A DNA stretch of 64,000 nt from Aliihoeflea aestuarii (GTDB lineage: Bacteria > Pseudomonadota > Alphaproteobacteria > Rhizobiales > Rhizobiaceae). The notes under the pieces were generated by a model. It saw nothing but the letters and a program-made list of their open reading frames with translations, did not search any database and was not told where the DNA came from. Position 1 is the stretch's first letter. Each line of letters opens with the position of its first letter. The position numbers and the translations under genes were made by a program. This document shows, in pieces, positions 2,440-20,271 of the stretch. The DNA lies in contig NZ_JAAAMK010000002.1 of assembly GCF_024105665.1 (NCBI RefSeq), forward strand, positions 310,001 through 374,000. Reading direction: 5' to 3'.

Positions 2440-2529
2440 TGGCGGAGGGAGTGGGATTCGAACCCACGGAGACATTGCTGCCTCGCCGGTTTTCAAGACC
2501 GGTGCCTTAAACCGCTCGGCCATCCCTCC
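2440..2529 (-). tRNA. tRNA-Ser (anticodon UGA)
   Basis: Read on the minus strand the gene starts GGAGGGATGGCCGAGCGG and ends TCCCTCCGCCA. The 7-bp acceptor stem closes with discriminator G and an encoded CCA (2442-2440). The anticodon arm is CCGGT-CTTGAAA-ACCGG with anticodon TGA. A variable arm is present, giving the 90-nt length of a type II tRNA. Its 5' half (2491-2529) lies inside the 40-bp repeat repeated at 20232-20271, so this is the attachment-site tRNA of the element to its right. The promoter region beyond 2530 belongs to the element. Confidence 0.97.
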
Positions 2530-2530
2530 G
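2491..2530. repeat. attL core: 40-bp direct repeat in the 5' half of tRNA-Ser
   Basis: Exactly identical to 20232-20271 (begins tttcaagaccggtgcc, ends ccatccctccg). Flanking bases differ on both sides (t/a before, a/t after), so the identity block is exactly 40 bp. It runs from the anticodon loop to one base beyond the 5' end of the tRNA gene. Together with the adjacent integrase it defines the left end of the integrated element. Confidence 0.95.
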
Positions 2531-2568: not shown

Positions 2569-2600
2569 TGCTACCAGGCCGTTGCTACCATTTTGCTACC
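2569..2600. repeat. left arm-type integrase sites (three TGCTACC repeats)
   Basis: TGCTACC occurs at 2569-2575, 2583-2589 and 2594-2600, between the attL core and the integrase stop codon. The last two form tgctaccattttgctaccga, which closely matches tgctaccaatttgctaccga at the right end (20095-20114). Short repeats flanking the core at both ends are typical arm sites of tyrosine recombinases; binding itself is inferred. Confidence 0.6.
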
Positions 2601-2609
2601 GAATGCGGT

Positions 2610-3767
2610 TCACGCTGTCGGCTTTACCGCTGCTCGGATCATCACGTCAACCTGTTCCGCAGCATCTGCTTGCATTCCGGGCATGACGTGACTGTAGAGG
2701 TCCAGCGTAATCCCGATGGTCGAGTGCCCCAAACGCTCGCTAGCGACCTTCGGATGCACGCCGGCCGATAGCATCTGCGAAGCGTGTGTATGCCGCAGAT
2801 CATGGAAACGGATACGCGGCAGTTCGGTCTTGGTGATTAGGCGCACCCACTCATGCGTCAGCGAACGCGGCTGGATCGGGCTACCGTCGTATTGTGCCAC
2901 GACGAAGCTGTCGTCATCCGGGCGCAAGCCGAGGCGTAGTTGCTCTTCCGCCTGCCTCGCACGATGCGCCTTCAACTCAGCAAGAACCGTTGTGGATACG
3001 GCCACAACGCGCGCCCTGCCCGATTTCGGCTCCTTATACCGGACGCCCTCTTTCGTTTGCTCTGCGCTCTCTACAACGGCGATGCTGCGGCGATTGTCGC
3101 CAAGCTCCACATTGCGCCAGCGTAGTGCCAATATCTCCCCTCGCCTCAGCCCGCACATGACAGCCAGCAGTGTCGGCACAAACATGCGCGTCGGTCGCAA
3201 GGCCTCAAGGAGCGCGTGCGTCTGCGCTGCGTCATAGGCCAGCATCTTTTTGCGCTCGACTTTGGGCGGCGTCGTGGCCTGTGCCGGGTTCTTCGAAATC
3301 CTATCCCACGTCACGGCCTGGCTGAGCGCCTTAATTAGCACCCTGCGCATGTGGTGGACGGTGCGAGGCGATAGACCGCCCTTCCCGTCCCTGCGGCCTT
3401 CGGTCAGTGCCTTGGTGAATGCCGCGTCGATCCGATCTGTCTTGAGCTTCGATAGGGTGATGGAACCAATCAGCGGGGCCATGCCCTTCTGCATCAACTC
3501 ACTGTATCGCTCGTGCGTCTTTGCCGAAACCGATGGCTTGATGAAGGTCAGCCACTCGTCCAAGAACTCGGCAACCGTCTGCTTGCTAGCCTCGACATAA
3601 TTGCCGGACTTCATCTGCGTGACGAGGCGAGCGCATTCCTCTTCAGCTTTGCGCTTCGAAGTCGTCTTGAATGTGTGCCACTTTCGCCGACGCTTGCCCG
3701 TCTCATCGTAGATATCGATGATAATGGCCCATGTGCCTGGGCTGCGCTCGCGAACGTGGCCTTTCAT
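2610..3767 (-). CDS. int: tyrosine recombinase, phage integrase
   Basis: 385 residues. It integrates and excises the element at tRNA-Ser. The N-terminal Arm-binding-like domain is at about 1-60, an SAM-like core-binding domain at 63-165, and the catalytic domain at 175-370. Catalytic residues are visible: R208 (GLRRGE), K248 (EPKSGRA), H322 and R325 (FHDLRHTHAS), H348 (RLGHST) and Tyr358 (LDLYSH). It is complete and apparently intact. The start ATG 3767 overlaps the stop of the upstream RHH gene (TAATG), so the two are translationally coupled. The gene reads toward attL, 80 bp from the tRNA. A fragment of a related integrase C-terminus lies beyond attR. Confidence 0.96.
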   Translation of the reverse strand: MKGHVRERSPGTWAIIIDIYDETGKRRRKWHTFKTTSKRKAEEECARLVTQMKSGNYVEASKQTVAEFLDEWLTFIKPSVSAKTHERYSELMQKGMAPLIGSITLSKLKTDRIDAAFTKALTEGRRDGKGGLSPRTVHHMRRVLIKALSQAVTWDRISKNPAQATTPPKVERKKMLAYDAAQTHALLEALRPTRMFVPTLLAVMCGLRRGEILALRWRNVELGDNRRSIAVVESAEQTKEGVRYKEPKSGRARVVAVSTTVLAELKAHRARQAEEQLRLGLRPDDDSFVVAQYDGSPIQPRSLTHEWVRLITKTELPRIRFHDLRHTHASQMLSAGVHPKVASERLGHSTIGITLDLYSHVMPGMQADAAEQVDVMIRAAVKPTA

Positions 3768-4228: not shown

Positions 4229-4261
4229 CTGGCTAACCTTTCCACAGTTCTGCACACCCAC

Positions 4262-7265: not shown

Positions 7266-7272
7266 GGTGAGC

Positions 7273-7521
7273 ATGACAAAACAACTGACAGCCAGCGCCT
7301 TCGACGCCATGACATCCGCCTTAGGCGGACGTTCGCCTCGAATTATTTGGACGGCATCTGCGATAGCGTCTCGAATTGGCACATCTCCAGACTTCGTTCG
7401 AGACAAACTTGCGTATCTTCCTGATACACCTGTGAGGCAAGTAGGTGGTAGGTATTGCGCAATAGAGACAGACCTTATCGATTTCTTTCGAGCAGCAAAG
7501 AATTCTGTGGCAGGCAAGTAA
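7273..7521 (+). CDS. small HTH-like phage protein
   Basis: 82 residues from ATG 7273 (GAGGTGAGC just upstream). The middle (IIWTASAIASRIGTSPDFVR, then DKLAYLPDTPVRQVGGRYCA) has the shape of a helix-turn-helix followed by a beta-wing, as in small excisionase- or terminase-type DNA-binding proteins. The frame upstream to 7189 lies in the previous gene and is ignored. It could be a late-gene regulator: it sits at the early/late boundary, just before the exported protein and the portal gene. Inference only. Confidence 0.5.
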   Translation: MTKQLTASAFDAMTSALGGRSPRIIWTASAIASRIGTSPDFVRDKLAYLPDTPVRQVGGRYCAIETDLIDFFRAAKNSVAGK

Positions 7522-7562
7522 AAGTCGTGATACGGGCGATTATTCCCACCGGAGATAATCGA

Positions 7563-7913
7563 ATGCGCATTTTGCTTGCAGCGGCCGCCCTTATGGCGGT
7601 CACGACCTCGTCCTATGCCGCATGCTATGGCACCGGCAACTACCAGCGTTGCTCTGACAATTCAGGCAACAGCTATTCTGTTCAGCGCTACGGCAACACC
7701 ACCAATTTGCGGGGCTACAACAGCAACACCGGCTCGTCGTGGTCACAGAACAGCCAGCATCTTGGCAACAGCACATTCACCAGAGGCTATGACGCCGATG
7801 GCAATTCTTGGAATTCCACGACCCAGCGGATTGGCGACAGCTCGTTCACAAGGGGAATGGACTCGGATGGCAATTCCTTCAGCCGTACGTGCAACAGCTT
7901 CGGCTGCTTCTGA
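7563..7913 (+). CDS. exported four-repeat protein, possible lysogenic-conversion gene
   Basis: 116 residues. A clear signal peptide (MRILLAAAALMAVTTSSYA) is cut before A20. The mature part is made almost wholly of four 21-24-residue repeats beginning at C21, R42, H66 and R89, with consensus G-[NDT]-[ST]-[ST]-F-x-R-G-x-D-[SA]-D-G-N-S-[WFY]. Cysteines lie only in the outer repeats (21, 30, 110, 115) and could form two disulfides. Ser, Asn and Gly content is high and Lys is absent. It lies between the early and head modules, where cargo genes often sit. A beta-hairpin surface protein is plausible; function unknown. Confidence 0.7.
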   Translation: MRILLAAAALMAVTTSSYAACYGTGNYQRCSDNSGNSYSVQRYGNTTNLRGYNSNTGSSWSQNSQHLGNSTFTRGYDADGNSWNSTTQRIGDSSFTRGMDSDGNSFSRTCNSFGCF

Positions 7914-7979
7914 ACGAAACCCACTTTAACCCATTCTTCCAAATAGGGTTTTCTCGCGCGCGCGGGCAAATTGGGCCAC

Positions 7980-9218
7980 ATGAAGATGTGGCCCTTTTCC
8001 CGTTCTGAGCCTATCGAGACGAAAGCCCCGTCAGGCACGTCCATTCCCGAAGATTGGATGTTCGAGCTATTCGGCGGTGGCGTCGTTGCTGAGTATGCCG
8101 TCACCGGCCGGCAGGCGTTCGAAGTCCCTGCCGTCGCCAGCGCCGTCGCGCTTCTTTCCGGCTCCGTCGCCTCCCTCGACATTCTCGTCGAGCGCCGCGA
8201 TGGCGACAATTGGGTTCAGGACAAGGATCACCATGTCGCTGAGCTTCTGGCTGATCAGCCGAACGACTGGTCTTCGACCTATCAGCTTATCCGCGATCTG
8301 GTTGCCACTGCCCTGACGAGCAATGAGGGCGCGGTCGCTCTAGTGAACAAGATCGACGGCAAGCCGATCGAGGTCATTCACTACGCTCCCGGCTCCTACA
8401 CCATCGATTATTCAACGGACGGACGCCTTGAACCGTCATACCGGATCGGCAACCGTCCGGTCGGCAATTCCGACATCATCCATCTTCGCAGCCCCTTTGA
8501 GCGGTGCCCGCTGTCCCTCGCCGCCGGTGCAATCGGCGTAGCGCACAAGCTGGAACGCCACGCCGGCAACCTCTTTGCTCGCGGCGCTCGTCCTTCCGGC
8601 ATCATCTCCACGCCGAAGGCCATGGGCGACGAGGGCGTCAAGAAGATGCTCAAGGGCTGGCGCGCTGCCCATGAAGGACCGGAGAACAGCGGTCGCACCG
8701 CCATCCTGTTCGACAGTGCGACATGGATGCAGACGGTTCTCACCAGCGTCGATGCGCAGTTTCTCGAAACGTGGAAACACGCCATCCTCGAAATCTGCCG
8801 TGCGTTCCGCATCCCGCCGCAGCTTCTCTACGACCATGAGCGTGTGACCTGGGCCAATGGCGAACAGGCCGCGAAGGAATGGCTGGCTGGCCTTGAGTTC
8901 TGGATGCGTCCGCTTGAAGCAGCTATGCGCCGCGCCTTGTTCTCGGAGGACGAGCGCTATGACTGGCGCATTCGCTTCGACCGCGACGATTTCACCAACG
9001 TGGATCTGACGGCCCGCGCGACTGCCGTGTCGTCGCTGATCTCGTCCGAGGTCATCAACCGGAACGAAGCCCGCGACTGGCTGGGCATGGGGCCGCGCAC
9101 TGGCGGCGACGAGTTCGGCAACCCACACATCAATCCGACGAAACCAGTTCCCGCCGATGGCGGAAGGCAACTTCCTCAAAATGAGGATGTTGAAAGGAAG
9201 CCGACCAATGACGCTTGA
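7980..9218 (+). CDS. phage portal protein, HK97 family
   Basis: 412 residues from ATG 7980 (MKMWPFS); a TTG at 7971 and an ATG at 7986 are alternatives. Recognisable portal features: AFEVPAVASAVALLSGSVAS near the N-terminus, WVQDKDHHVAELLADQPNDW, and the SFRIPPQLL-like CRAFRIPPQLLYD with downstream EQAAKEWLAGLEFWMRPLE. Forms the dodecameric ring through which DNA enters the procapsid. In most siphophages the large terminase lies just upstream; here it is 5 kb downstream. Confidence 0.93.
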   Translation: MKMWPFSRSEPIETKAPSGTSIPEDWMFELFGGGVVAEYAVTGRQAFEVPAVASAVALLSGSVASLDILVERRDGDNWVQDKDHHVAELLADQPNDWSSTYQLIRDLVATALTSNEGAVALVNKIDGKPIEVIHYAPGSYTIDYSTDGRLEPSYRIGNRPVGNSDIIHLRSPFERCPLSLAAGAIGVAHKLERHAGNLFARGARPSGIISTPKAMGDEGVKKMLKGWRAAHEGPENSGRTAILFDSATWMQTVLTSVDAQFLETWKHAILEICRAFRIPPQLLYDHERVTWANGEQAAKEWLAGLEFWMRPLEAAMRRALFSEDERYDWRIRFDRDDFTNVDLTARATAVSSLISSEVINRNEARDWLGMGPRTGGDEFGNPHINPTKPVPADGGRQLPQNEDVERKPTNDA

Positions 9219-9594
9219 GGACATCCTTCACAACGTCCGCGATCAGGATCGTGGCAAGGTCTTCGAACTGGTCGATCCCGTCGAGGGCAAGCCAACCGGC
9301 ATCAAGCTTTGGATCGTCGGTCCCGATAGTGAAACTGCGCACCGCGCCCGCCTGGCGCTCGCTGACGAGCTTGCCGAGGTCGCGGACCCGGAAGGCCGGA
9401 TCACTGCCGAGCAGCGCGAGCGCGCCCGCCTGAACTGCCTCGCTGCCCACGTCCAGCGCTGGGAAGTTGTCGAGGAAGGCGAGCCGGTTCCTTTCACCAC
9501 GAAGAACGTCCTTCGCCTGCTTCGCGTCCATTGGGTGCAGGAGCAGGTTGACGGCTTCGCTGCCGACCGCCGCGCACATCGGGGAGACGCCTGA
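9208..9594 (+). CDS. hypothetical phage structural-module protein
   Basis: 128 residues from ATG 9208 (GAAAGGAAG 9 nt upstream), overlapping the end of the portal gene by 11 nt. Its stop overlaps the protease-capsid start (TGATGG). The protein is acidic, with a beta-rich first half (GKVFELVDPVEGKPTGIKLW) and helical second half (AELADPEGRITAEQRERARL type pattern). Similar small genes appear between portal and protease in some alphaproteobacterial phages. No function assigned. Confidence 0.65.
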   Translation: MTLEDILHNVRDQDRGKVFELVDPVEGKPTGIKLWIVGPDSETAHRARLALADELAEVADPEGRITAEQRERARLNCLAAHVQRWEVVEEGEPVPFTTKNVLRLLRVHWVQEQVDGFAADRRAHRGDA

Positions 9595-11189
9595 TGGAGC
9601 AGATAGAGGTCAAGGCCACCGTCACCATCCCGGGCGAAGGCACCATCGCCGGTTATGCATCCCTGTTCGGCGTCCCTGCCGATCTGGTGAACGACATCGT
9701 ATCGCCCGGAGCGTTCAAATCGTCCCTGAGCGCCAAGCTGCCGAAAATGCTGTCCGAGCACGGTGGCGAGCCTATCGGGCAATGGACGGAAGTTGTCGAG
9801 GACGAACTTGGCCTGCGTGTCAAAGGCCGGTTCGATCTCAACAGCAAAGGCGGTCGCGATGCCTATCAGGCCGTGAAATCCGGTCGCAGCAAAGGCCTGT
9901 CTATCGGTTTTGTCGCCACGAGGGCACCGCGCGGCCCTGATGGCGTCCGCACCCTCGAAGAGATCGATCTTCGGGAAATCAGCGTCGTGCGCGAACCGGC
10001 ATCCAGCCGGGCAATCATCCTCAACACGAAGTCGGCACCAGCCGGAAAGGAAACTGACATGGCAGAGATTGCCGAACTCGAAACCAAAATGAAAACTCTC
10101 AGCGAGTCGGTCGCTGATGGGCTCCACCACCTGACGGAGCACAAATCTGAAACGTCGAAGCTAACCGATCGCCTCGACAAGCTCGAAGCAAAGGCCAACC
10201 GCCCCGCCGCCGATCCAAAGGCGGATAATGGCGAGATCGAAAAGAAGGCGCTTGCATCTTGGGTCCGTGGTGGCGTCCAGTCTCTCGACGAGGACGAAAT
10301 CAAGTCGCTCCGCGATATCGAGATGAAGACCTTGCGTCTCGGATCCAACCCGGCCGGCGGCTATGTCGTGGCACCGGAATTTTCGACCCGCATCTTGCAG
10401 TCGATCTCCGAACTGTCCCCGATGCGTACCATCGCGAACATCATGTCGATCTCGACGACGGAAGTCATCATCCCGAAGCTGGCCACGCATATCCAGCCTG
10501 GCTGGGTGACGGAAATCGGCCCCCGACCGACTTCGGAACCGACCTTCGATCAGCAGAAGATTAGCGTTCACGAACAGGCCGTCATTGTCCCTATCTCCCA
10601 GCAGCTTCTCGAAGACAGCTTCGTCGATCTCGAAAGCTTCCTGCGCAATCACATCGCCCGCGAGTTCGCCAAGATGGAAGCGGCAAGCTTCGTCGTCGGT
10701 GACGGCAACGGCAAGCCGGAGGGATTTCTGAACGATCCCGATATCTACGAGGCGGTTGAGACCGCAGCGGACGGCACCGGCATCGTGGATAGCCTCATCG
10801 CTCTCTACTACGCATTGCCGACCGAATATGCGCGCAACGCGGTATGGACGATGAACCGGAAGACCATGGCGATGATCCGTGGCCAGATGGACAACACCCA
10901 GCGCATGATCTGGGGCGACAGCCTCGCTACAGGCCAGCCGAACACGCTTCTGGGCCGGCCGATCTACGAAATGGTCGATATGCCCGATCTCGCAGCCGGC
11001 AACGTCGCAGCCGCCTTCGGTGACTTCAATGTCGGCTATCAGATCGTGGACCGCATCGGCATCCAGACCATGCGCGACGATTACACCGGCGCTGACAACG
11101 GCATCGTGAAGATCCGTGCCCGTCGCCGCGTCGGTGGTGCTCCGGTCATGGAAGAGGCCATCGCGGTCCTCAAGGGGACTGGCGAGTAA
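9594..11189 (+). CDS. fused HK97-type prohead protease and major capsid protein
   Basis: 531 residues. Residues 1-160 form the U35-type prohead protease: GTIAGYASLFGVPADLVNDI, catalytic His in MLSEHGGEPIGQW (about residue 60) and Ser in KGLSIGF (about 103). Residues 165-205 are a coiled-coil scaffold-like delta domain. Residues 245-531 are an HK97-fold major capsid protein with the typical AGGYVVAPEF, PSEPTFDQ and DDYTGADNGIVKIRARRRVGG blocks. Protease and capsid are usually separate genes; fusions are known in some phages and imply the precursor is cut between the domains. The stop overlaps the HNH start. Confidence 0.92.
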   Translation: MEQIEVKATVTIPGEGTIAGYASLFGVPADLVNDIVSPGAFKSSLSAKLPKMLSEHGGEPIGQWTEVVEDELGLRVKGRFDLNSKGGRDAYQAVKSGRSKGLSIGFVATRAPRGPDGVRTLEEIDLREISVVREPASSRAIILNTKSAPAGKETDMAEIAELETKMKTLSESVADGLHHLTEHKSETSKLTDRLDKLEAKANRPAADPKADNGEIEKKALASWVRGGVQSLDEDEIKSLRDIEMKTLRLGSNPAGGYVVAPEFSTRILQSISELSPMRTIANIMSISTTEVIIPKLATHIQPGWVTEIGPRPTSEPTFDQQKISVHEQAVIVPISQQLLEDSFVDLESFLRNHIAREFAKMEAASFVVGDGNGKPEGFLNDPDIYEAVETAADGTGIVDSLIALYYALPTEYARNAVWTMNRKTMAMIRGQMDNTQRMIWGDSLATGQPNTLLGRPIYEMVDMPDLAAGNVAAAFGDFNVGYQIVDRIGIQTMRDDYTGADNGIVKIRARRRVGGAPVMEEAIAVLKGTGE

Positions 11190-11533
11190 TGCCCGCCCGC
11201 GCTCCGTCCATCTGCTCACACTGCGGCAAGGCGCATGCTTCAGGTGCTCTTTGCAGCAAGGCCATGCAGGCGAGGACGGAGCGCAAGGCAAAGCATGACG
11301 CCAAGAGGCCGAATGCTCGCTGCCGTGGCTATGACAGGGAATGGGAAAAGGCACGAGCCGACTATCTCGCTGCCTATCCCTCCTGCCGCCGCTGCGGCTC
11401 CAAGGCCAATCTCGTCGATCACATCGAACCGATCCGTAAGGCACCTCATCGCCGTCTGGACCGGACCAATTTCATGTCGCTCTGCACGCCATGTCATTCC
11501 GGCTGGAAGCAGGCAAAGGACAAAAGGAACTGA
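11189..11533 (+). CDS. HNH endonuclease
   Basis: 114 residues. An N-terminal zinc knuckle (CSHCGKAHASGALC) is followed by the HNH core: CRRCGSKANLVDHIEPIR (first His H in VDHI), central N in RTNFMSLC, and CTPCHSGWK. Phage HNH proteins of this size assist terminase in cutting cos-type DNA. Here it lies between the capsid and tail-tube genes, about 2.5 kb before the terminase pair. Complete and apparently intact. Confidence 0.88.
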   Translation: MPARAPSICSHCGKAHASGALCSKAMQARTERKAKHDAKRPNARCRGYDREWEKARADYLAAYPSCRRCGSKANLVDHIEPIRKAPHRRLDRTNFMSLCTPCHSGWKQAKDKRN

Positions 11534-11536
11534 GCC

Positions 11537-12016
11537 ATGCCCTTCTTCGCCACCAATGGCACAAAGGTCTACATCGGCGGCGTGCTGCCCATGAAGGACG
11601 ATGATTTCGTTGCCGCTGACTTCCCTTCCGAATGGACAGAGGTCAAGGGCGTTGTGTCCCTCGGCACGGTAGGTGACACAGCCGAAGGCATCACGACCGC
11701 CCACTTCGGATCGAACCGTAGTCAGACGCTCAAGGGCACCCGCAACGGTGGCACCGCTGAGCTACAGGTTGACGTGGATTATACCGACCCCGGTCAGCTT
11801 GCCCTTATCGCCGCAGAGAAGACCATTCACGACTATGCATTCCGTGTCGTCTTCAACGATGCACCAGTTGGTGGCACGCCATCGGAACGCATGTTCGTCG
11901 GCAAGGTCATGTCATCGGCCGAAGAGATTGGCGAGGTGAACAACGTCGTCCGCATGAACGCCTCGGTCGCCATCAACTCGAACATCGTCCGCGTCGCACC
12001 GACGACAGGCGGTTGA
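11537..12016 (+). CDS. major tail tube protein
   Basis: 159 residues. Starts MPFFATNGTKVYIGG and has features of siphophage tail-tube proteins: WTEVKGVVSLGTVGDT, LKGTRNGGTAELQVDVDYTDPGQ, then a region ending in hydroxyl-rich strands (NNVVRMNASVAINSNIVRV). Forms the tube around the tape measure. Lying before the head-tail connectors is unusual; the common order puts connectors first. A 114-nt non-coding gap follows. Confidence 0.8.
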   Translation: MPFFATNGTKVYIGGVLPMKDDDFVAADFPSEWTEVKGVVSLGTVGDTAEGITTAHFGSNRSQTLKGTRNGGTAELQVDVDYTDPGQLALIAAEKTIHDYAFRVVFNDAPVGGTPSERMFVGKVMSSAEEIGEVNNVVRMNASVAINSNIVRVAPTTGG

Positions 12017-12130
12017 TGCCCCAAGGGGGACCGACCAACGGAAGGCCGGGGTGGTCATGAACTTTCGGCCTCTAGCGGGGACCGGCGCGGGGGCAAACGC
12101 ACAAGCCTTGACTAAAATGGAGTTTGGCCA

Positions 12131-12433
12131 ATGCCGCTCATTCTCGATGACCTGAAAGCTCAGTGCAATGTGACGGACGACGCCGATGATGCGGTTATCG
12201 CCCGCTGCCTGCTTGCGGATCATATGCACATCGAGGCCATGCTCGGCAGGCATCTTCATGATGAAGACGAGTTCCCTGGTGGGCTTCCGGCCGACGTCGA
12301 GCAAGCCATCCTTATGGTCGGTGCGCACTTCTACGAGAACCGCGAGGCCACGCTGGTGGGTGTGACGGCGCTGCCGCTGCCCATGGGCGTCGAGCAGATC
12401 ATCGCCAACCACAGGAGCTATACCTTTGGCTGA
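12131..12433 (+). CDS. head-tail connector protein (gp6-like)
   Basis: 100 residues. LDDLKAQCNVTDDADDAVIARCL followed by a helix (HMHIEAMLGR) and LPADVEQAILMVGAHFYENREA is the standard DnaT/gp6-like head completion fold that docks under the portal. The C-terminal MGVEQIIANHRSYTFG is typical of the family. The stop overlaps the next gene, which uses a TTG start. Confidence 0.88.
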   Translation: MPLILDDLKAQCNVTDDADDAVIARCLLADHMHIEAMLGRHLHDEDEFPGGLPADVEQAILMVGAHFYENREATLVGVTALPLPMGVEQIIANHRSYTFG

Positions 12434-12842
12434 CGATGGCGGTCTTCGCAGGCTTCAAAAGCGGCTACAAGATATTCCTGATGAGGTGGTCCGCGCCGTT
12501 CAACCGGCGCTTATTCGGCAGGCAGAGACGATTGCCGGGACGATGAAATCTGCTGCGCCACGTGACACAGGCGATCTGATCGACAGCATTGCCATCACGC
12601 CACCGGATAGTTCGACGCCCCCCTATTCGCAGCCGGGCGGTCGCACCGTCGTTCCAGAGACTTCCGTTGCCATCACTGTCGGCAATGCCGATGTCAGATA
12701 CGCGCATCTCGTCGAGTACGGGACGCAGAAGGCGAACGCTCAACCGTTCTTCTGGCCATCGGTAAGGCTTCATCAGAAGCGCGCCAATGCTTCCATCAAG
12801 AACGCTATCCGCCGCGCGGTGAAAAAGGAGTGGGGCAAATGA
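12426..12842 (+). CDS. HK97 gp10-like tail component (TTG start)
   Basis: 138 residues. HK97-gp10 family signs: AETIAGTMKSAAPRDTGDLIDSI and VRYAHLVEYGTQKANAQPFFWPSVR. Probable neck/tail completion protein joining head and tail. The start is taken as TTG 12426 because AGGAG lies 8 nt upstream and no ATG or GTG is available before the conserved N-terminal helix. It overlaps the connector gene by 8 nt. Confidence 0.87.
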   Translation: MADDGGLRRLQKRLQDIPDEVVRAVQPALIRQAETIAGTMKSAAPRDTGDLIDSIAITPPDSSTPPYSQPGGRTVVPETSVAITVGNADVRYAHLVEYGTQKANAQPFFWPSVRLHQKRANASIKNAIRRAVKKEWGK

Positions 12843-13249
12843 GCGCCGCCCTTGCCGTTCAGAAAGCTATTCGTGCGCGGTTGTCTTCCACCGTTGGTGT
12901 GACATCCCTCGTGCCGGTCGCAAACATCCTCGACAGGAACGCGCTTCCCGCGCCCGATCCCTCCATCATCATCGGTGAAGATCAGGCCGTTGAACATGGC
13001 GACATAGCCCGTCGTGGCGAACTGATCTTCTCGACGTTGCATATCTGGAAGCGCGAGCTTGGCCTGACAGGCGCCAAGGCCATCGCCAGCGCGATCCGAA
13101 CCGCCATCCATGCCGAGCGCCTGCATGATGCAGGTGGCTACCATATTGCCGATTGTCGCGTGTCCTCCATGCGTTTCCTTCGCGACCCTGATGGCGAAAC
13201 CGCTCACGGCATCGTCACCATCGAAACGCTCGTGATGGAGGTCGCATGA
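12839..13249 (+). CDS. DUF3168 tail terminator-like protein
   Basis: 136 residues; ATG 12839 overlaps the upstream stop (ATGA). LAVQKAIRARLSSTVGVTSLV at the N-terminus, then HIWKRELGLTGAKAIASAIR and a C-terminal strand-rich part (RVSSMRFLRDPDGETAHGIVTI) match the DUF3168/lambda gpU-like tail terminator pattern. It caps the tail tube at the head-proximal end. Coupled to the next gene by ATGA at 13246. Confidence 0.83.
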   Translation: MSAALAVQKAIRARLSSTVGVTSLVPVANILDRNALPAPDPSIIIGEDQAVEHGDIARRGELIFSTLHIWKRELGLTGAKAIASAIRTAIHAERLHDAGGYHIADCRVSSMRFLRDPDGETAHGIVTIETLVMEVA

Positions 13250-13566
13250 GAGCCGGCGAACTCGACAGAACCATCGTCATCGAAAGCTATGTGCGCGGTG
13301 AGCCGGATGAATGGGGCATCCCGCATGAGGGCTGGGAACCGTTCGCCACGGTGCGCGTGAAAATCATGCAATCCAGCACCGAGGAATTCCTGCGATCCTA
13401 TGGCGAGACGGCAGAAGCCGCGATCATCTTTCGCATCCGCTGGATCGACGATCTGACGACCATGCGCCGCGTCACCTATGAGGGCGTCCAGTTCAATATC
13501 CGCGAGATCAAGGAAATCGGCCGTCGCAAGGGGCTGGATATTCGCTGCGTCGGGAGGGCGTCATGA
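13246..13566 (+). CDS. phage head closure/head-tail adaptor protein
   Basis: 106 residues. LDRTIVIESYVRGEPDEWGIP, EPFATVRVKIMQSS, FRIRWIDDLTTMRRVTYEGVQFNI and REIKEIGRRKGLDIRCV are the typical blocks of SPP1 gp16-type head closure proteins, which plug the portal after packaging. Small and complete. Start ATG 13246 overlaps the upstream stop; its own stop overlaps the small terminase start. Confidence 0.87.
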   Translation: MRAGELDRTIVIESYVRGEPDEWGIPHEGWEPFATVRVKIMQSSTEEFLRSYGETAEAAIIFRIRWIDDLTTMRRVTYEGVQFNIREIKEIGRRKGLDIRCVGRAS

Positions 13567-13994
13567 AGGGCACCAAGCCGAAGCTGGTCATCTCGAACGA
13601 GGCCGTGACGAAGACGCCCGCGCCGCCGTCCTGGCTGTCTGTGGACGCTAAGAAGGAATGGCGTCGGATCATGCCGACTGTCGTCAGGCGGCGCATCCTG
13701 ACGACCGCCGATCTCGGCAGCGTTGAGAACTATTGCATCTGCATCGGCACCGCACGCGAGGCCGAACGGCATCTGCAAAAGCATGGCCATGTCTACGAGG
13801 CGTTCAAGGATACCGAGGACGGCCCCGTCTGCATCGGCATGAAGCGCAACCCGTCATCGCTGGTGCTGAAAGACGCCATTGCCGCCAGCCGCCAGCTTGC
13901 CGCCGAACTTGGCCTGACGCCGGTTTCGCGGTCCCGCCCATCCATTCGAGAGGACGATGACGACGATGGTCTTAATCCGCTCGACATCTCCTGA
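13563..13994 (+). CDS. terminase small subunit, P27 family
   Basis: 143 residues. PAPPSWLSVDAKKEWRRIMP at the N-terminus, LTTADLGSVENYCICIGTAREAERHL in the middle and KRNPSSLVLKDAIAASRQLAAELGLTP near the end are typical of P27-like small terminases that recognise the packaging site. The C-terminus is a run of Asp (EDDDDDG). The gene sits after the connector genes rather than at the start of the head module. ATGA coupling to the upstream gene. Confidence 0.9.
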   Translation: MKGTKPKLVISNEAVTKTPAPPSWLSVDAKKEWRRIMPTVVRRRILTTADLGSVENYCICIGTAREAERHLQKHGHVYEAFKDTEDGPVCIGMKRNPSSLVLKDAIAASRQLAAELGLTPVSRSRPSIREDDDDDGLNPLDIS

Positions 13995-14063
13995 AGGCAT
14001 TGCCATGACGGCAACACCTCAAAGGTATGTGTATGACACACGCACCTTGAAGGTATGGCCATC

Positions 14064-15793
14064 ATGACCACACCTTCGACATTCCCCGCGTGGGTCTACG
14101 ATGACTCGGACATTCCCGATCCGTTCGGCTATGGCGAGCGCGCGGTGAAGTTCCTGCGTGCGCTCCGGCATCCGAAGTCCATCCTTCCCGGCAAGGGCTT
14201 CCAGCTTGATCCGTGGCAGGAGCGCATCGTCCGCCGCATCTACGGGCCGCGCCACGACGACGGCACCCGCATCGTAAAGACGGTGGTGTTGCTACTGCCT
14301 CGCGGCAACCGGAAGACCTCTCTGTCGTCTGCCCTATCCATGCTGCACGTCATCGGGCCGGAGCGCGAACCTGCTGGCGAGTGCATATTCGCGGCGGCAG
14401 ACAGGAAGCAGGCAGGCATCGCCTTCAAGGAAGCGGTCGGCATCGTGCGGGAGGACAAGCGCCTTGTCGCTGCCACCCGCGTCTACGACGCCCACAACAG
14501 CGCGAAGAAGATCACCTATCCGAAAGAGGCGTCCTATCTGGAAGTCATCTCCGGCGATGCTGGCCCGCAGCATGGTCGCACGCCGTCATTCGTCCTCGCT
14601 GACGAAATCCACATCTGGCCAAACCGCTGGCTATGGGAAGCGCTGACGACCGGCCTCGACAAGACCGATAATCCGCTTCTGATCATTGCGACAACAGCGG
14701 GGCGCGGTGACGACAATCTTGCGCACGAGGTTATCGACGATGCCCGCAAGGTTGCGCGTGGCGAGGTAGATGATCCTTCCATCTTGCCTATCCTGTTCGA
14801 AGCGCCGCGCGATGCCGACTGGAAGGACGAAGAGGTCTGGCACCTCGTCAATCCCGGCCTCAAGCACGGCTATCCATCGCTCGATGGCTTCCGCCGCCAT
14901 GCCAAACGCGCCGAACGCAGCGTCGGTGAGCGCCAGTCCCTCAAGCAACTAAAGCTGAATATCTGGCTGGATGCGGCGACTGATCCATTCGTTGACATGG
15001 ATATCTATGATGTGGGCCGCAGGGACTTCGATCCGGAAGACCTCAAAAGCGAACCGTGCTGGATCGGCGTTGACTTGTCCTCAACCGTGGACCTGTCCGT
15101 CATCGTGGCGTGCTGGCGCACCGCAGACGGCTATTTCGTCAAGCCGTGGTTCTTCTGCCCCGAAGATACGATTTCGACGCGTGAGGACGCATCCGGTGGC
15201 TCCTACCTCGAATGGGCGGAGAATGGTCTGATCACAGCCACCGAGGGTACCGTGATCGATTACCAGGCCATTGAAAACAAGATCATCGAGCTTTGCGAGG
15301 ACTTCGATGTCCGCGAGGTCGCCTTTGATCCGTTCATGGCGCGCCAGGTGCAGCCGAAGCTTCTGGAAATGGGCCTGCCCGCCGTGGACATGCGGCAGGT
15401 GCCGTCGCTCATGATGCCTGCCTTCCACGAACTTGAGCGCGCAATTCTCGGCAGCGAGTTCATGCACGGCGCATGGAAATGGGCCTGCCCGCCGTGGACA
15501 TGCGGCAGGTGCCGTCGCTCATGATGCCTGCCTTCCACGAACTTGAGCGCGCAATTCTCGGCAGCGAGTTCATGCACGGCGCAAATCCGGTCCTGCGTCA
15601 CTGCTTCGCGAACGTCGTCGTGAAGCGCAACGATCAGGGCCACGTCGCCAAGTTCACCAAGTCCCGGCAATGGCTGTCGATCGATGGCGCGGTAGCTGCC
15701 GCGATGGCTGTCTCGCGCTGCCAGTCGGGAGATAGCGGCAAATCCAGCTACGACAGTTTCAACGGCGATATAGAGGAATGGGCTTATGTCTGA
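14064..15793 (+). pseudogene. terminase large subunit, broken by a 110-bp tandem duplication
   Basis: From ATG 14064 (GAAGG 10 nt upstream). Residues 79-86 are a Walker A variant (PRGNRKTS); Walker B is VLADEIH, with LIIATTAGRG as motif C. The nuclease domain begins at CWIGVDLSSTVDLSV with a second acid in VAFDPFMARQ. At 15474 the sequence repeats 15364-15473 exactly. The 110-bp unit shifts the frame and the chain stops at 15524 after about 16 wrong residues. The remaining C-terminus, including the last nuclease acid in LSIDGAVAAAMAV, continues in another frame to 15793. Removing one copy restores a 539-residue terminase. An assembly error is possible; otherwise packaging is lost. Confidence 0.9.
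15364..15583. repeat. exact 110-bp tandem duplication inside terL
   Basis: Unit 1 is 15364-15473 and unit 2 is 15474-15583, identical at every base read. Both start tggaaatgggcctgcccgcc and end ttcatgcacggcgca. The flanking bases (c at 15363, a at 15584) do not extend the repeat and there is no obvious microhomology. Because 110 is not a multiple of three, it frameshifts the terminase gene. Confidence 0.95.
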
Positions 15794-17807
15794 GAGCGCG
15801 GAACGCCTCGTTGTGCTGCTGGAAGCGCGCGTTCGCGACTTCGAGCGCAACATGCAGCGCGCCAGTGGACAGGCGGGAACATCCTTCAACCGTATGCGCC
15901 GCGACAGCAGGTCTGCCACGCAGCAGATGGAACGCGACATGCTGCGCTCCACAACGAGGATCAATCAGGCGCTTGCCTCCACCTCTACGCAGATAGGCGT
16001 TTTGGCCCGGTCCTTCGCAGCAGGCTTTGCGGGCGGTGTCTTTGCTGGTGGCCTTGCCGGTGCACAGCGCGCCGTTCGCAGCATCGTTTCGGAATTGTCC
16101 GAGATGGGCAAGGAGATCGATCGCGTCGGCCTTTCGGCCAAGGTGTTTCAGGAACTCAAATTCGGCTTCGGAGAGGCGGGTGTCGAAGCATCCGAGTTCA
16201 CGACCGGCATGGAGCAGTTCAATCGCCGGATCGGTGAGGCTGCAACGCGCGGTGGCAGGCTTGCCGAGATATTCAAAGCCAACGGCATCGCCTTGCGCGA
16301 CCAGGCCGGAAATATCCGTTCGAATGAGGCGCTGCTTCGCGACTACGCCAACCTCGTCAAGAATGCCGGTTCCGAGCAGGAGCGGATGACGCTCGCCACA
16401 GAAGCGTTCGGGCGCGGTGGTGCAGCCTTCGTTCTGGCGCTTCGTAACGGTGCTGACGGCTTCGACGACATGGCAGAGGCAGCGGCAAACGCGGGCGGTG
16501 TGATCGACGAGGAACTGATCCGCAAGGCCGAAGAACTGGACGACCGATGGGCGGCGTCGTGGCGCAACTTCGAGGTAAACGCCAAGTCCGCGATCATGAA
16601 TGTGATCTCCACGCTCGACAACATGAGCGATCACCTTGAGACCATCTATCGATGGATGAACGACATCGGCAACTCATCGTTCTTCCGGTGGCTGCTCACA
16701 AAAATGGACGACGCCGGCCTGATCACCATCGATCTGAACTATGGCAATATCGGTGCGATGGATGCTGCCGACGACCTGGCAGCGATGCAAAAGCGGGTCT
16801 CCGATCTATCGCAGCACGTCGAACACCTACTGCATATCGGTGAAGATGCTGCCGCTGCCGAGCAGCAGCTTGCCGAAGCCCGCGCCCGTCTCAATGCTGC
16901 GGTGCGTGCCATCACTTCGGGCGGATCGGGTGATACCGTCCTGCCTTCCATCACCGTTTCGGGCGATGATCCTCCAAAGACGAAGATCCCCGGATCGGGT
17001 GGCCGCTCTGGTGGTGGTGCCCGCAACAGCGCCGCATCTGCTGCGCTTCGTGAGGCTGAAGCGGTCCAGAACCTTATCGATAGCCTGACACATGAACTCA
17101 GCCTGATCGGCATGTCCGACGCGGAAAAGGCCGAGGCGAACGCGCTCAGGCAGGCTGGTGCGGCGGCAACGGACGAACAGCGCCAGCAGATCGAAATGCT
17201 GGTGCAGGCCATCCACGACGAGACCGAAGCGCTCAAGGCATCTGAAGCGGCCCAGCGCAATCGTACGCAGGCCATGAGCAACATGTTCCAGATGGGCGAA
17301 GAAGCGCTTCTCGCCATGCTGGACAACAGCCAGAAGGCAGAGGACGCGATCAAACGCCTCGTCATCCAGTTAGCGCTTGCGGCGGCTCAGGCCGCGCTTC
17401 TCGGCACAGGCCCGCTTGCGGGATTGTTCGGCGGCGCTGCCGGCGGTGGCAGCATCTTGGGCGGGATAGGGAAAATCTTTGGCTTTTCGGAGGGCACCGC
17501 AAACACAGGGGGCGCACGTGGGGAGCCTCGTGGCATCGTCCACGGTCAGGAGGCCGTCATACCCCTACCGAACAACAGAAAGGTGCCCGTCCATATAGAG
17601 GGCGGTGCAAGTGCAGGTGGTGGCGAAACCCGCGTGAAGGTGGATGTTGGTGTCAGCGTCGACAAGAACGGCAATCTCCAAGCCTTCGTCCGCGACGTGT
17701 CGGAGGAGACTGCCGGCACATTGGTCCGTCAGGGCATCGGTGAGTACCGGCGCGGCATGGTGCAGGACGACATGGACGCCTTCCTGCGCGATCCGAGGGG
17801 GCGGTAA
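15786..17807 (+). CDS. tail tape measure protein
   Basis: 673 residues. Overlaps the end of the terminase frame by 8 nt. Signs: a long Ala/Gln/Arg-rich helical protein with a hydrophobic stretch at about 75-95 (FAAGFAGGVFAGGLAGAQ), an extended linker rich in Gly, Ser and Pro near 385-420, coiled coils at 425-500, a second hydrophobic region near 530-570 (Ala, Leu, Gly-rich), and the lambda-gpH-type end FSEGTANTGGARGEPRGIVHGQEAVI. It sets tail length: at roughly 1.5 angstrom per residue it implies a tail near 100 nm. It appears intact, unlike the terminase. Confidence 0.9.
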   Translation: MSESAERLVVLLEARVRDFERNMQRASGQAGTSFNRMRRDSRSATQQMERDMLRSTTRINQALASTSTQIGVLARSFAAGFAGGVFAGGLAGAQRAVRSIVSELSEMGKEIDRVGLSAKVFQELKFGFGEAGVEASEFTTGMEQFNRRIGEAATRGGRLAEIFKANGIALRDQAGNIRSNEALLRDYANLVKNAGSEQERMTLATEAFGRGGAAFVLALRNGADGFDDMAEAAANAGGVIDEELIRKAEELDDRWAASWRNFEVNAKSAIMNVISTLDNMSDHLETIYRWMNDIGNSSFFRWLLTKMDDAGLITIDLNYGNIGAMDAADDLAAMQKRVSDLSQHVEHLLHIGEDAAAAEQQLAEARARLNAAVRAITSGGSGDTVLPSITVSGDDPPKTKIPGSGGRSGGGARNSAASAALREAEAVQNLIDSLTHELSLIGMSDAEKAEANALRQAGAAATDEQRQQIEMLVQAIHDETEALKASEAAQRNRTQAMSNMFQMGEEALLAMLDNSQKAEDAIKRLVIQLALAAAQAALLGTGPLAGLFGGAAGGGSILGGIGKIFGFSEGTANTGGARGEPRGIVHGQEAVIPLPNNRKVPVHIEGGASAGGGETRVKVDVGVSVDKNGNLQAFVRDVSEETAGTLVRQGIGEYRRGMVQDDMDAFLRDPRGR

Positions 17808-18147
17808 TGAAGCTTCTTGCAAACGCGCTGCGGCGTCATCTTCAGGGCGCGGTAGTCCGAATATTCCCGAAGCCGGTCGCGATCTGTGGGAGATATTCGC
17901 TGACCTCTGCGGAACCCGCACCTATCACGCCGCAGGCCCCAACCCGATCAGCTACGCGGAAATCCAGAGCTACGCACAAGTTAACCGCTGGCCTTTGAAG
18001 CCGCATCATGTCGCGACGATCCGGGCGCTCGATGCGGTCTGGATCGAACATGTCATGATCCGTTCGCAGGCGAAAGACGCTAGGTCGCAGTCGCCATCTT
18101 CAATGCAGGGCATCAACCCGGCTGCGTTCGATGCGGTGTTCGGATGA
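17807..18147 (+). pseudogene. tail-associated gene after tape measure, apparently frameshifted
   Basis: ATG 17807 has a strong GGGGGCGG site and overlaps the tape measure stop, but its own frame leaves the conserved part. The coding-quality sequence (DLWEIFADLCGTRTYHAAGP, NPISYAEIQSYAQVNRWPLK, then IRALDAVWIEHVM) lies in the -1 frame from about 17860 to 18147, and that frame has no ATG, GTG or TTG after the tape measure stop. The pattern matches small tail-chaperone-like proteins that follow tape measure genes in related phages. Either an indel near 17845-17870 broke it or a frameshift is programmed. I see no classical slippery heptamer. Confidence 0.5.
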
Positions 18148-18965
18148 GCAAGCGACGGAAGCACAAGACGGATTTCGGCAAGGGCTGGCGCGCTGGTTAC
18201 AGCGAGTATCGATACGGAACGTCGAAGCCTATCACGCTGGCGAATGTCATGAGGCCCGCGCCCATCTTCCGAGGGGAGAAGAAGAAGCACGTCATCCAGC
18301 AAACTATGGATGCGATGCGCGATTGGCGGATGTCGCCGTTCGAAGAGGAAGGGACGATGATTGCTGGCTTGCGCAGCGGCCTTTGTCTCGATGGCTACGG
18401 CTGGAGCCGTTCAGATCAGCAGGCGCGGGAAATCGTTTCGGAAGCGCTTCGATTGCTGGGAGCCAAACGGCCGACCTGGGAACAGGGGCAGCCAGACTAT
18501 GTGGAGCCACATGAAAACTGCAAGGTATGTGGCGGGCCACTGGATGAAGAGGCGCTTTCATACCGTGATCGATTTTGCTCGGCAGAATGCGCACGTATTG
18601 CGATGGAGAAGCGGACCTTCTGGCAAACGTCGCGAGACAGCGCCCTATATCGTCGCGCGGTACAGCTAGTCCGTATTTCTCGAAAGCCGGTTCGCGAATG
18701 TCAGCAATGTGGCAAGAGCTTCCGGCAGCGTGGCGAGAACGGGCAAGCCAAGTTCTGTTCGTCGGACTGCTACGCGGATCACAAGCGAGAGAGAGCACCG
18801 TCTTTCAAAAGCAATTGCGCTTTCTGCTGGACGCCATTCACGTCGAAACAGCCGGCAATGTTCTGTTCCCCAACGTGCAAGACCCAGGCCCACCGCGTTC
18901 AAAGCGGACGGATCAAGCGCCTCTCACCGCCCGTCTTCGACTACGTGTTTGCAATGGCGGCTTAG
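18144..18965 (+). CDS. protein with three tandem four-cysteine zinc knuckles
   Basis: 273 residues, ATGA overlap with the previous frame. After a basic N-terminus (MSKRRKHKTDFGKGWRAGYS) and a helical part, three similar units follow: CKVCGGPL...FCSAEC, CQQCGKSF...KFCSSDC and CAFCWTPF...MFCSPTC. Each is C-x2-C, about 15-20 residues, then F-C-S-x2-C. They should hold one zinc each, like short treble-clef or FCS-type fingers. The role could be DNA or RNA binding, or protein assembly. It lies where tail-tip genes would be expected. Last rightward gene of the element. Confidence 0.65.
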   Translation: MSKRRKHKTDFGKGWRAGYSEYRYGTSKPITLANVMRPAPIFRGEKKKHVIQQTMDAMRDWRMSPFEEEGTMIAGLRSGLCLDGYGWSRSDQQAREIVSEALRLLGAKRPTWEQGQPDYVEPHENCKVCGGPLDEEALSYRDRFCSAECARIAMEKRTFWQTSRDSALYRRAVQLVRISRKPVRECQQCGKSFRQRGENGQAKFCSSDCYADHKRERAPSFKSNCAFCWTPFTSKQPAMFCSPTCKTQAHRVQSGRIKRLSPPVFDYVFAMAA

Positions 18966-19240
18966 GAGTTCATTGTTGCCAAGATCCCTATGGCAGTGAC
19001 GATGACGGTCACGGAAACGGCAATGGCAGAGACTTTTGTCCAATATGCTGCCTTTTCCGCCGCGACTGCCGCGCGCTCTGAGGCTTGCGCCGCAGTAATA
19101 TCTGCTAGCGCAGCTCTGCGCTGCAACTCCGCAGTATACCAGACTGCCACGGGCTTGCCGGCTTGAACGCCGCCGAAACGTTCAAGAAGCTCATCCAACG
19201 ACATCCCTGCCATTGTCCGAATTCTAAATTCATCACTCAT
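18962..19240 (-). CDS. small C-tail-anchored membrane protein
   Basis: 92 residues. A soluble N-terminal part (MSLDELLERFGGVQAGKPVA) leads to an Ala-rich helix (LADITAAQASERAAVAAEKA) and one C-terminal transmembrane segment (VSAIAVSVTVIVTAIGILA). The gene is convergent with the zinc-knuckle gene; the two frames overlap at their 3' ends by 4 nt. It belongs with the lipoprotein and HTH genes to a short leftward group at the right end of the element. Possibly a lysogen-expressed host-modification gene; a lysis role (holin/spanin-like) is less likely because the helix is C-terminal. Confidence 0.55.
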   Translation of the reverse strand: MSDEFRIRTMAGMSLDELLERFGGVQAGKPVAVWYTAELQRRAALADITAAQASERAAVAAEKAAYWTKVSAIAVSVTVIVTAIGILATMNS

Positions 19241-19264
19241 TCTGCACCAAGCCGCAAATGTCGC

Positions 19265-19738
19265 CTACCGCGTCAATATGACATCAACGCTTTGACCGTT
19301 TGAAACAGTGACTACCTGGGTTAGGTCGCCGCCCTGCTGCCAGTCACCAGCCATCCAAGTCACTCTCGTGATAAGGTAGTATTGGCCATCTGGAATGCCG
19401 GAGAAAGTGAAGCGTCCTTCGCCGTTCGCCTGTGTCATCTTGGAATAGTCGCGAAGTCGTTGATCGCCGTTTTCGAACTGAACGTTGCCGTACGTGTTGC
19501 CCGCTGCCGCAAAAATCTCGCGCGTGTAAGACGTGTACGGCAGGAGCAGAACCGGACTGCCGGCGGCATACACAACGATGCCATCATTCCGACGCATGAA
19601 GGCTTGGCCAGCAACCGTCGCCCTGCCTGCTTGAACGGCATACGCATGCTCAGCAGGATTGAACGGCGTAGTGATATTGACGGATTGCACACAGCCCGAA
19701 AGGGCAACCGCAAGAGCGGCTACAATTGCAAACTTCAT
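19265..19738 (-). CDS. prophage-encoded lipoprotein
   Basis: 157 residues from ATG 19738 (GGGGGA just upstream; the longer frame to 19792 is not needed). The signal peptide ends in the lipobox LSGC at 13-16 of MKFAIVAALAVALSGCVQS. The mature domain contains a carboxypeptidase-regulatory/transthyretin-like beta pattern (EGRFTFSGIPDGQYYLITRV). Outer-membrane or periplasmic lipoprotein expressed separately from the late operon. In prophages such genes often change receptors or block superinfection. That role is only inferred. Confidence 0.65.
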   Translation of the reverse strand: MKFAIVAALAVALSGCVQSVNITTPFNPAEHAYAVQAGRATVAGQAFMRRNDGIVVYAAGSPVLLLPYTSYTREIFAAAGNTYGNVQFENGDQRLRDYSKMTQANGEGRFTFSGIPDGQYYLITRVTWMAGDWQQGGDLTQVVTVSNGQSVDVILTR

Positions 19739-19810
19739 GATATTCCCCCGGTGTCCCTTTCTCACGATGGCGCAACCGGAAGGCGAGTTCAAGATGCCGA
19801 CGATCTCAAA

Positions 19811-20017
19811 TCACAGATCGCGGGACGGCTTTGCGTTGATTGAAGCATTCTCATAGCGAACAACGTCTTCCGTACGAATACGGACGAGCTTCCCACCCAA
19901 GCGGAAGAAATCTAGATCGCCTCGCTCAAGCATGTTCCGAATGTGCCTTTCGGAGCAGTGCCATCGCTCAGCCAGTGTCTTCGGCGTGAAAACGTTTGGC
20001 AGGTCTTCGTCGCTCAT
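19811..20017 (-). CDS. excisionase-like helix-turn-helix protein
   Basis: 68 residues. VFTPKTLAERWHCSERHIRNMLERGDLDFFRLGGKLVRIRTEDVVRYE fits the excisionase/AlpA winged-HTH pattern: the HTH WHCSERHIRNML followed by a wing with the RLGGKLVRI turn. It lies 215 bp inside attR, so in the excised circle it would be next to attP and the integrase. Best candidate for the recombination directionality factor. It is leftward and might be co-transcribed with the lipoprotein gene. Confidence 0.75.
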   Translation of the reverse strand: MSDEDLPNVFTPKTLAERWHCSERHIRNMLERGDLDFFRLGGKLVRIRTEDVVRYENASINAKPSRDL

Positions 20018-20094
20018 ATGCGCCTCGTCGGAAGCTAGGGGCCGATAAGTCTGGTTATCGGCCGTCAGGATTTCAGAACGGAGACGGAACAGGC

Positions 20095-20125
20095 TGCTAC
20101 CAATTTGCTACCGAACTCGGTAGCA
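20095..20125. repeat. right arm-type integrase sites
   Basis: TGCTACC occurs at 20095-20101 and 20106-20112 in direct orientation, and in inverted form (GGTAGCA) at 20119-20125. The block tgctaccaatttgctaccga mirrors the pair at 2583-2602 at the left end. This supports a P/P' arm layout and places the element's right boundary just beyond, at the attR core. Confidence 0.6.
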
Positions 20126-20231
20126 CAGGCCGAAATAGAACAGGATGGGAACGGACTCGCCCTCTCTCAAACCGCGCAATTCCGGGGCTTTGAAGCACGG
20201 TTAAGGACGAGGCGGCACTAATCTAAGCGAA

Positions 20232-20271
20232 TTTCAAGACCGGTGCCTTAAACCGCTCGGCCATCCCTCCG
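20232..20271. repeat. attR core: 40-bp copy of the tRNA-Ser 5' half
   Basis: Identical to 2491-2530. Only the 5' half of the tRNA is present, so it cannot make a tRNA. The sequence to its right (20272 onward) is the original upstream flank of the tRNA-Ser gene before this element entered. Confidence 0.95.

What the first reader, a model, noticed from the sequence alone, without database searches (positions are those of the whole stretch)
15364..15583. Exact 110-bp tandem duplication disrupts the large terminase
Two identical 110-bp units shift the reading frame and remove the last part of the nuclease domain (including LSIDGAVAAAMAV). Deleting one copy restores the gene. The identity of the units implies a very recent event, or a reversible one: slippage or RecA recombination could switch packaging on again.
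Basis: seen in the sequence. Interest (0 to 1): 0.55.

Follow-up and report, generated by a model that had tools for sequence, protein, structure and literature searches.

The report
Exact tandem duplication splits prophage terminase
A small phage-like element in a bacterial genome carries a fresh-looking, exact 110-letter head-to-tail duplication that splits its DNA-packaging gene into two overlapping pieces; this looks like an ordinary, in principle reversible copying or repair accident, not a new kind of switch.

Summary
In detail: 15364-15473 and 15474-15583 are identical 110-bp units, abutting, with no homology at the ends. The gene is an HK97-type large terminase (TerL). The duplication leaves a 489-aa ORF with two of the three catalytic aspartates and an overlapping 106-aa ORF with the third. 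Of 160 related loci (141 distinct TerL sequences), 154 have an uninterrupted TerL and none holds an exact tandem duplication.

An assembly artefact is unlikely: contig ends of this genome share exactly 127 bp, which implies graph words longer than the repeat. No reads were available.

Best reading: a recent single accident, possibly end joining (the host has Ku and LigD), in a 17.7-kb capsid-encoding element. Probably a TerL null, but intrinsically revertible. Closest precedents: tandem duplications in pneumococcal capsule genes and the 101-bp tetA repeats of E. coli.

Selection for switching has no support here.

The parts
15364..15473 (+). duplication unit, copy 1 (110 bp)
   Evidence: the repeat finder and Tandem Repeats Finder, 100% identity
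15474..15583 (+). duplication unit, copy 2 (110 bp), entered in a shifted frame by the first ORF
   Evidence: frame
14055..15524 (+). TerL, first ORF (489 aa): ATPase domain and nuclease domain up to the end of copy 1, then 16 out-of-frame residues; carries D340 and D425. A second in-frame ATG at 14064 has the better ribosome-binding energy.
15473..15793 (+). TerL, second ORF (106 aa from an ATG formed at the junction; 90 aa from ATG 15521): rest of the nuclease domain with the third aspartate
   Evidence: (20.2 bits, below the Pfam cut-off of 24)
15521..15524 (+). ATGA: start codon of the second frame overlaps the stop of the first; SD-like pairing -7.0 kcal/mol
13563..13994 (+). small terminase subunit
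   Evidence: phrog_83, E 1.6e-31
11189..11533 (+). HNH endonuclease
   Evidence: PF01844; phrog_144
15786..17807 (+). tape measure protein, starting inside the end of the second TerL ORF
   Evidence: phrog_10574, E 1.2e-65
7971..9218 (+). portal protein
   Evidence: PF04860, E 5.3e-70
9594..11189 (+). prohead protease fused to major capsid protein
   Evidence: PF04586 and PF05065
11537..12016 (+). major tail protein
   Evidence: phrog_158
12131..13566 (+). neck genes: head-tail adaptor, Neck1, tail terminator, head closure
   Evidence: phrog_40, phrog_5, phrog_176, phrog_25
2610..3767 (-). tyrosine integrase
   Evidence: PF00589; phrog_1
2491..2530 (.). attachment-site repeat, left, all but one base inside tRNA-Ser 2440-2529
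   Evidence: 40-bp exact repeat; tRNA
20232..20271 (.). attachment-site repeat, right
   Evidence: 40-bp exact repeat

Best explanation
A single, recent mutational accident duplicated 110 bp inside the large-terminase gene of a 17.7-kb integrated, capsid-encoding phage-like element (2491-20271). The join has no homology, so simple slippage between short repeats does not explain it. A staggered break whose ends were filled in and joined, for example by the host's Ku/LigD end joining, would give exactly this product. The duplication shifts the frame; the main product lacks the auxiliary hairpin, the lysine after it and the third catalytic aspartate of the RNase H-like nuclease. The element in this cell line is therefore probably unable to cut and package its own DNA. 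An exact tandem repeat of this length is unstable and should be lost at a measurable rate by template switching during replication, so the defect is probably leaky or revertible in a population, as a by-product and not as an evolved switch. Shown: the duplication, the frames, the residues that fall out of the first ORF, the single-copy relatives, the presence of Ku and LigD. Inferred: end joining, loss of function, rate of reversion.
For: Exact 2 x 110 bp with zero end homology. TerL domains PF03354 and PF20441. Profile match of 60 relatives to HK97 TerL 6z6d, positions 17-510 of 531, E 3.8e-86; D302, D388 and D471 are named as its catalytic centre in PMC9410871 (passages). By the printed alignment these fall on D340 and D425 of ORF 1 and the IDG aspartate of ORF 2, each invariant in the 152 relatives aligned. 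Of 160 related loci, 153 have an uninterrupted TerL of 536-560 aa and one more (L053) of 535 aa. Against three relatives both parts of the gene show dN 0.11-0.15 and dS 0.9-1.7, the latter near saturation, so the gene was under constraint until recently. 12 of the 35 readable contig ends, in 5 groups, share exactly 127 bp, so the assembly probably used words longer than the repeat. Two Ku genes with a LigD between them. 101-bp tandem repeats in tetA are lost independently of RecA in E. coli (PMC8378479, passages).
Against: No reads, so copy number and mixture are untested. The end-joining origin rests on one junction; a replication error without homology is equally compatible. Loss of function is not shown: an ATGA restart could supply the missing piece. 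No isolate of the same species was found to date the event. Only genes that were searched were judged intact, by family matches; a few small ORFs of the element were left out.
Confidence: 0.8

Rival explanations
1. Assembly artefact: a single-copy region was written twice when two overlapping contigs were laid end to end.
For: The genome is a draft of 25 contigs. An exact repeat with no mismatch and no end homology is what an unmerged overlap would look like, and no other exact tandem duplication was seen in 400 kb of the same genome.
Against: 12 of 35 readable contig ends share exactly 127 bp in 5 groups, so the words of the graph were probably 127 and an overlap left unmerged should be about that long, not 110; a 110-bp repeat is resolved by such words. 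Four further pairs of ends share 84-92 bp, read here as diverged repeat copies. There are no N at the join.
Confidence: 0.1
2. Two-piece terminase (same accidental origin as the best explanation, so the odds overlap): the ribosome stops at TGA 15522-15524 and restarts at the overlapping ATG 15521; the 489-aa and 90-aa pieces together hold every TerL residue and assemble into a working or partly working enzyme.
For: ATGA overlap with an SD-like site of -7.0 kcal/mol, within the range of the other starts of the element. In the model of the closest relative's TerL (mean pLDDT 91) the first piece ends in the loop between helix 441-456 and helix 466-473. Both parts are still constrained in sequence.
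Against: The overlap arises from an internal Met-Met of the protein and needs no selection. The first piece carries 16 foreign residues, and the second would start inside helix 441-456, so part of that helix is present twice. Constraint is explained by recency. Among the 160 related loci the only interrupted TerL inside a contig is a different frameshift (L030 and L151, the same sequence).
Confidence: 0.1
3. Evolved phase switch: the duplication is a selected, repeatedly arising off-state that grounds the element and lets a minority revert.
For: Sequence duplications in pneumococcal capsule genes control phase variation (titles of Waite et al. 2001 and 2003 as cited in PMC4022640, which also describes a tandem duplication in wchA; passages); repeats of 101 bp are unstable in E. 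coli.
Against: None of 160 related loci has an exact tandem duplication. There is no short repeat at the ends that would make the event recur at this place.
Confidence: 0.03

Closest known systems
Spontaneous tandem duplications in pneumococcal capsule genes (Waite et al. 2001, 2003; seen only as cited titles and one description in PMC4022640; that they are out of frame, their sizes and their loss are recalled)
   Same: A head-to-tail duplication inside a coding sequence silences the gene and can be lost again.
   Different: There phase variation was observed by experiment; here only one assembled genome is seen, and the gene is a phage terminase.
101-bp tandem repeats in tetA (plasmids pSTL57 and pSTL141) used to study RecA-independent deletion in E. 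coli (PMC8378479, passages)
   Same: Nearly the same repeat length, in tandem, inside a gene; loss is explained by template switching at replication without RecA.
   Different: On plasmids in E. coli; the rate in this host's chromosome is unknown.
HK97 large terminase (6z6d; PMC9410871, passages)
   Same: Same domain order and catalytic aspartates, HNH endonuclease encoded nearby.
   Different: HK97 TerL is one intact protein; here it is split.
Capsid-forming PICIs and the Streptomyces satellites MulchRoom and MiniFlayer (described in PMC10690885, passages)
   Same: A small element with its own portal, protease, capsid, neck, TerS, TerL and HNH, and no tail-tip or lysis gene found among the ORFs searched.
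   Different: This element also has a major tail protein and a tape measure protein, and no helper is known.

Membership tests
HK97-type large terminase (TerL) | TerL ATPase domain (PF03354) above cut-off | tested here: met
   58.1 bits against a cut-off of 23.7 in ORF 1
HK97-type large terminase (TerL) | complete nuclease domain with three aspartates in one polypeptide | tested here: not met
   D340 and D425 in ORF 1, third aspartate in ORF 2
Reversible inactivation by intragenic tandem duplication | exact head-to-tail duplication that shifts the frame | tested here: met
Reversible inactivation by intragenic tandem duplication | both states found in one population or species | not testable with these tools
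   no reads and no second isolate; exact words across the junction and across the end of copy 2 gave 0 matches each in viral contigs
Reversible inactivation by intragenic tandem duplication | recurrence in the gene family (expected only of an evolved switch) | tested here: not met
   0 exact tandem duplications in 160 related loci
Capsid-forming phage satellite | own head and packaging genes, integrase and att sites, small size | tested here: met
   17.7 kb
Capsid-forming phage satellite | no tail genes | tested here: not met
   major tail protein phrog_158 and tape measure phrog_10574 present
Capsid-forming phage satellite | mobilisation by a helper phage | not testable with these tools
   needs induction experiments

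The most novel reading that the evidence does not exclude
A tandem duplication turned a one-piece packaging motor into a two-cistron, translationally coupled terminase that still works, because a duplication of this kind loses no residue: piece one runs through copy 1 and piece two restarts inside copy 2 at an ATGA overlap. Cells would then hold a tunable, reversible packaging enzyme in a satellite-like element.
Probability: 0.05. Interest if true: 0.6.

Novelty: new member of a known kind. Interest (0 to 1): 0.27.

Why it matters
If real, it is a clean natural case of a prophage-like element caught soon after a revertible knock-out of its packaging motor, with no other broken gene noticed. 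It would let one measure how fast such elements are grounded and recover, and whether end joining makes homology-free tandem duplications in bacteria that carry Ku and LigD. It also warns that 'dead' prophages in assemblies may be one template switch away from intact ones.

Tried and rejected
Programmed -1 frameshifting between the two ORFs: no in-frame X XXY YYZ heptamer in the overlap. Rejected.

Restart at the junction ATG 15473: weak SD-like energy (-2.6 kcal/mol). The ATGs at 15521 (-7.0) and 15524 (-6.8) are better candidates.

Slippage between short repeats at the ends: no flanking homology. PMC3411829 (abstract and passages) reports that all rearrangements it confirmed in Salmonella had short repeats at the endpoints, but that study selected for junction homology, so it is only a weak contrast. 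PMC8355091 (abstract and outline) describes small tandem duplications from filled-in 3' overhangs joined by end joining, in human and mouse cells; it is used only as an analogy.

Same lesion elsewhere: exact 26-base word across the junction, 0 matches in viral contigs. A 20-base control word across the end of copy 2 also gave 0, so this absence says nothing about copy number in close relatives.

Another terminase of the same family in the genome: none found. One Terminase_6 gene lies in a gene-transfer-agent-like cluster. Other terminase families were not searched.

Papers on a TerL broken by a tandem duplication: one search with 'terminase large subunit', 'tandem duplication', 'prophage' and 'frameshift' (97 papers with at least 3 of 4 terms, 12 listed) showed no such case in its listing. 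The two listed papers that hold all four terms were opened for passages: their tandem duplications concern other genes. The remaining papers were not opened, so this is no proof that the case is new.

Lovett et al. 1993 (PMC1205708) is not held. In a phase-variation review (PMC11868660) the word 'duplication' does not occur (passages).

Full report
What is there. Two identical 110-bp units abut at 15364-15473 and 15474-15583. The match stops exactly at both ends: 3 of the 10 bases to the left agree, not the nearest ones, and 0 of 10 to the right. A scan for exact head-to-tail duplications with units of 30-2000 bp found this one in the window and none in 400 kb from 20 other stretches of the same genome, none in 80 related genome loci (1.02 Mb), none in 80 related viral loci (0.89 Mb) and none in 29 loci of unnamed relatives (0.12 Mb). 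The 160 related loci hold 141 distinct TerL match sequences; they are the best 80 of 87 and the best 80 of 238 relatives found. So the duplication is rare and not seen as a family trait.

What it hits. The gene is a large terminase: ORF 1 (14055-15524, 489 aa) matches the TerL ATPase and nuclease domains, and ORF 2 (15473-15793, 106 aa) matches the last part of the nuclease domain, the latter below the family cut-off (20.2 against 24 bits). A profile of 60 relatives matches HK97 TerL (6z6d) over positions 17-510 of 531, E 3.8e-86. A structure model of the closest relative's TerL (L002; mean pLDDT 91, pTM 0.69) has 6z6d as its best Foldseek match (E 2.8e-40), though with TM-scores of only about 0.5 and an rmsd of 10.1, probably because the two domains are set differently. 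The HK97 catalytic centre is D302, D388 and D471, with K463 after an auxiliary hairpin (PMC9410871, passages). The first two align with D340 and D425 of ORF 1; the third is D71 of ORF 2. The two strands that I take for the hairpin (475-479 and 485-490 of the L002 model) and an invariant lysine (K63 of ORF 2), which lies eight residues before that aspartate as K463 does in HK97, are also in ORF 2 only. All three aspartates are invariant in the 152 relatives aligned. The residue correspondence with HK97 was read by eye from the printed alignment, allowing for an offset of 10 in the chain numbering.

How the pieces lie. ORF 1 follows the true protein to the end of copy 1 and adds 16 foreign residues. 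Its stop, TGA 15522-15524, overlaps an ATG at 15521 in the frame of ORF 2, with a ribosome-binding energy of -7.0 kcal/mol against -2.6 to -10.8 for eleven other starts of the element; the TerL start at 14055 scores +0.4, but the in-frame ATG at 14064 scores -4.9. In the model of L002 the first piece ends in the loop between helix 441-456 and helix 466-473, and the second would begin inside helix 441-456. A second polypeptide of 90 aa could therefore be made, and the pair would hold every TerL residue. The finding did not mention this. It is an observation about the sequence; that the pieces are made or work together is not shown.

Was the gene healthy before? Against three relatives (L002, L003, L084), both parts show dN of 0.11-0.15 and dS of 0.9-1.7, the latter near saturation. 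Of 160 related loci, 153 have an uninterrupted TerL of 536-560 aa and L053, first scored as short because the alignment began before its start, has one of 535 aa. Four are cut by a contig end (L076, L079, L080, L124). L030 and L151, which carry the same Paracoccus gahaiensis sequence, have a different frameshift between codons 362 and 380. So TerL is normally kept, and the lesion here is young on this scale. The identity of the two copies alone bounds the age only loosely: with recalled bacterial mutation rates, tens of millions of generations would still be allowed.

Is it an artefact? The genome is a draft of 25 contigs. Of 35 readable contig ends, 12 in 5 groups share exactly 127 bp with another end; four further pairs share 84-92 bp, which I read as diverged repeat copies. 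A common length of 127 is the mark of a word size of 127 in the assembly graph (that this is a usual setting of SPAdes for reads of 250 bp is recalled). A repeat of 110 bp is shorter than such words, so the graph itself tells two copies from one, and an unmerged overlap should measure about 127, not 110. More than two copies cannot be excluded in this way. I put the artefact at about one in ten.

How it may have arisen. Duplications by slippage or recombination between short repeats leave a homology at the join; here there is none. A break with staggered nicks 110 bp apart, filled in and joined, gives exactly this product. The genome carries two Ku genes with, between them, a LigD that has ligase, phosphoesterase and polymerase domains. 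Work in human and mouse cells shows small tandem duplications arising this way (PMC8355091, abstract and outline). For bacteria this stays an inference from one junction.

Can it revert? In E. [quoted passage not shown] In pneumococcus, duplications in capsule genes control phase variation (Waite et al., titles as cited in PMC4022640). The present case works like these in principle, but a two-state population is not shown, so it is filed as a new example of a known kind of mutation, not as a phase-variable locus.

What carries it. The element runs from a 40-bp repeat at tRNA-Ser (2491-2530) to its copy at 20232-20271, 17.7 kb, with integrase, an excisionase-like gene, portal, protease-capsid fusion, HNH, major tail protein, neck genes, TerS, TerL, tape measure and a second HNH-like gene. 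No tail-tip or lysis gene was found among the ORFs searched; a few small ORFs were not searched. In three relatives, 10 ORFs from the tape measure gene onward gave tape measure, HNH and, in two of the three, tail-chaperone-like matches, again no tail-tip or lysis gene, apart from one weak match of a tape measure protein to a tail fiber/lysozyme family (E 0.0007). This resembles capsid-forming satellites (PMC10690885, passages) but keeps a tail tube and a tape measure, so it is not filed as one. G+C is 59.1% in the element and 61.9% in the window to its right. No phage record matched 13000-18000 at DNA level.

Verdict. Confirmed, most likely real, most likely a recent accidental and revertible knock-out of TerL. 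Interest is modest; the two-piece terminase is the boldest reading left open. The odds are as first written; the corrections made on checking (L053 intact, redundancy of loci, two papers opened) did not call for a change.

Noticed in passing
window 2491-20271 and loci L002-L161: A family of compact integrated elements in Alphaproteobacteria with head, neck, tail tube, TerS, TerL and tape measure, and no tail-tip or lysis gene found in the few examined. By my count 50 of the 80 IMG/VR records returned are on contigs of 14-21 kb. It may be a satellite-like group that brings its own tail tube.
   Followed up: partly
L260 (G000 C1:18001-38000) and L262 (G000 C19:235001-255000): Two more small elements of the same genome with integrase, capsid and tape measure genes; no terminase of PF03354 or PF03237 was found there, other terminase families were not searched.
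   Followed up: partly
L261 (G000 C1:92001-112000): A gene-transfer-agent-like cluster: GTA TIM-barrel protein, portal, Terminase_6, Gp84-like baseplate hub.
   Followed up: partly
L030 and L151, about 7080-7140: TerL of a Paracoccus gahaiensis element is frameshifted between codons 362 and 380, a lesion unlike the one here.
   Followed up: partly
window 28609-29063: Imperfect tandem arrays with 18-, 27- and 48-bp periods; not examined.
   Followed up: no
window 6198-6238: A 21-bp unit repeated about twice without mismatch, within the element.
   Followed up: no
L263 (G000 C3:52001-62000): A LigD gene lying between two Ku genes.
   Followed up: yes
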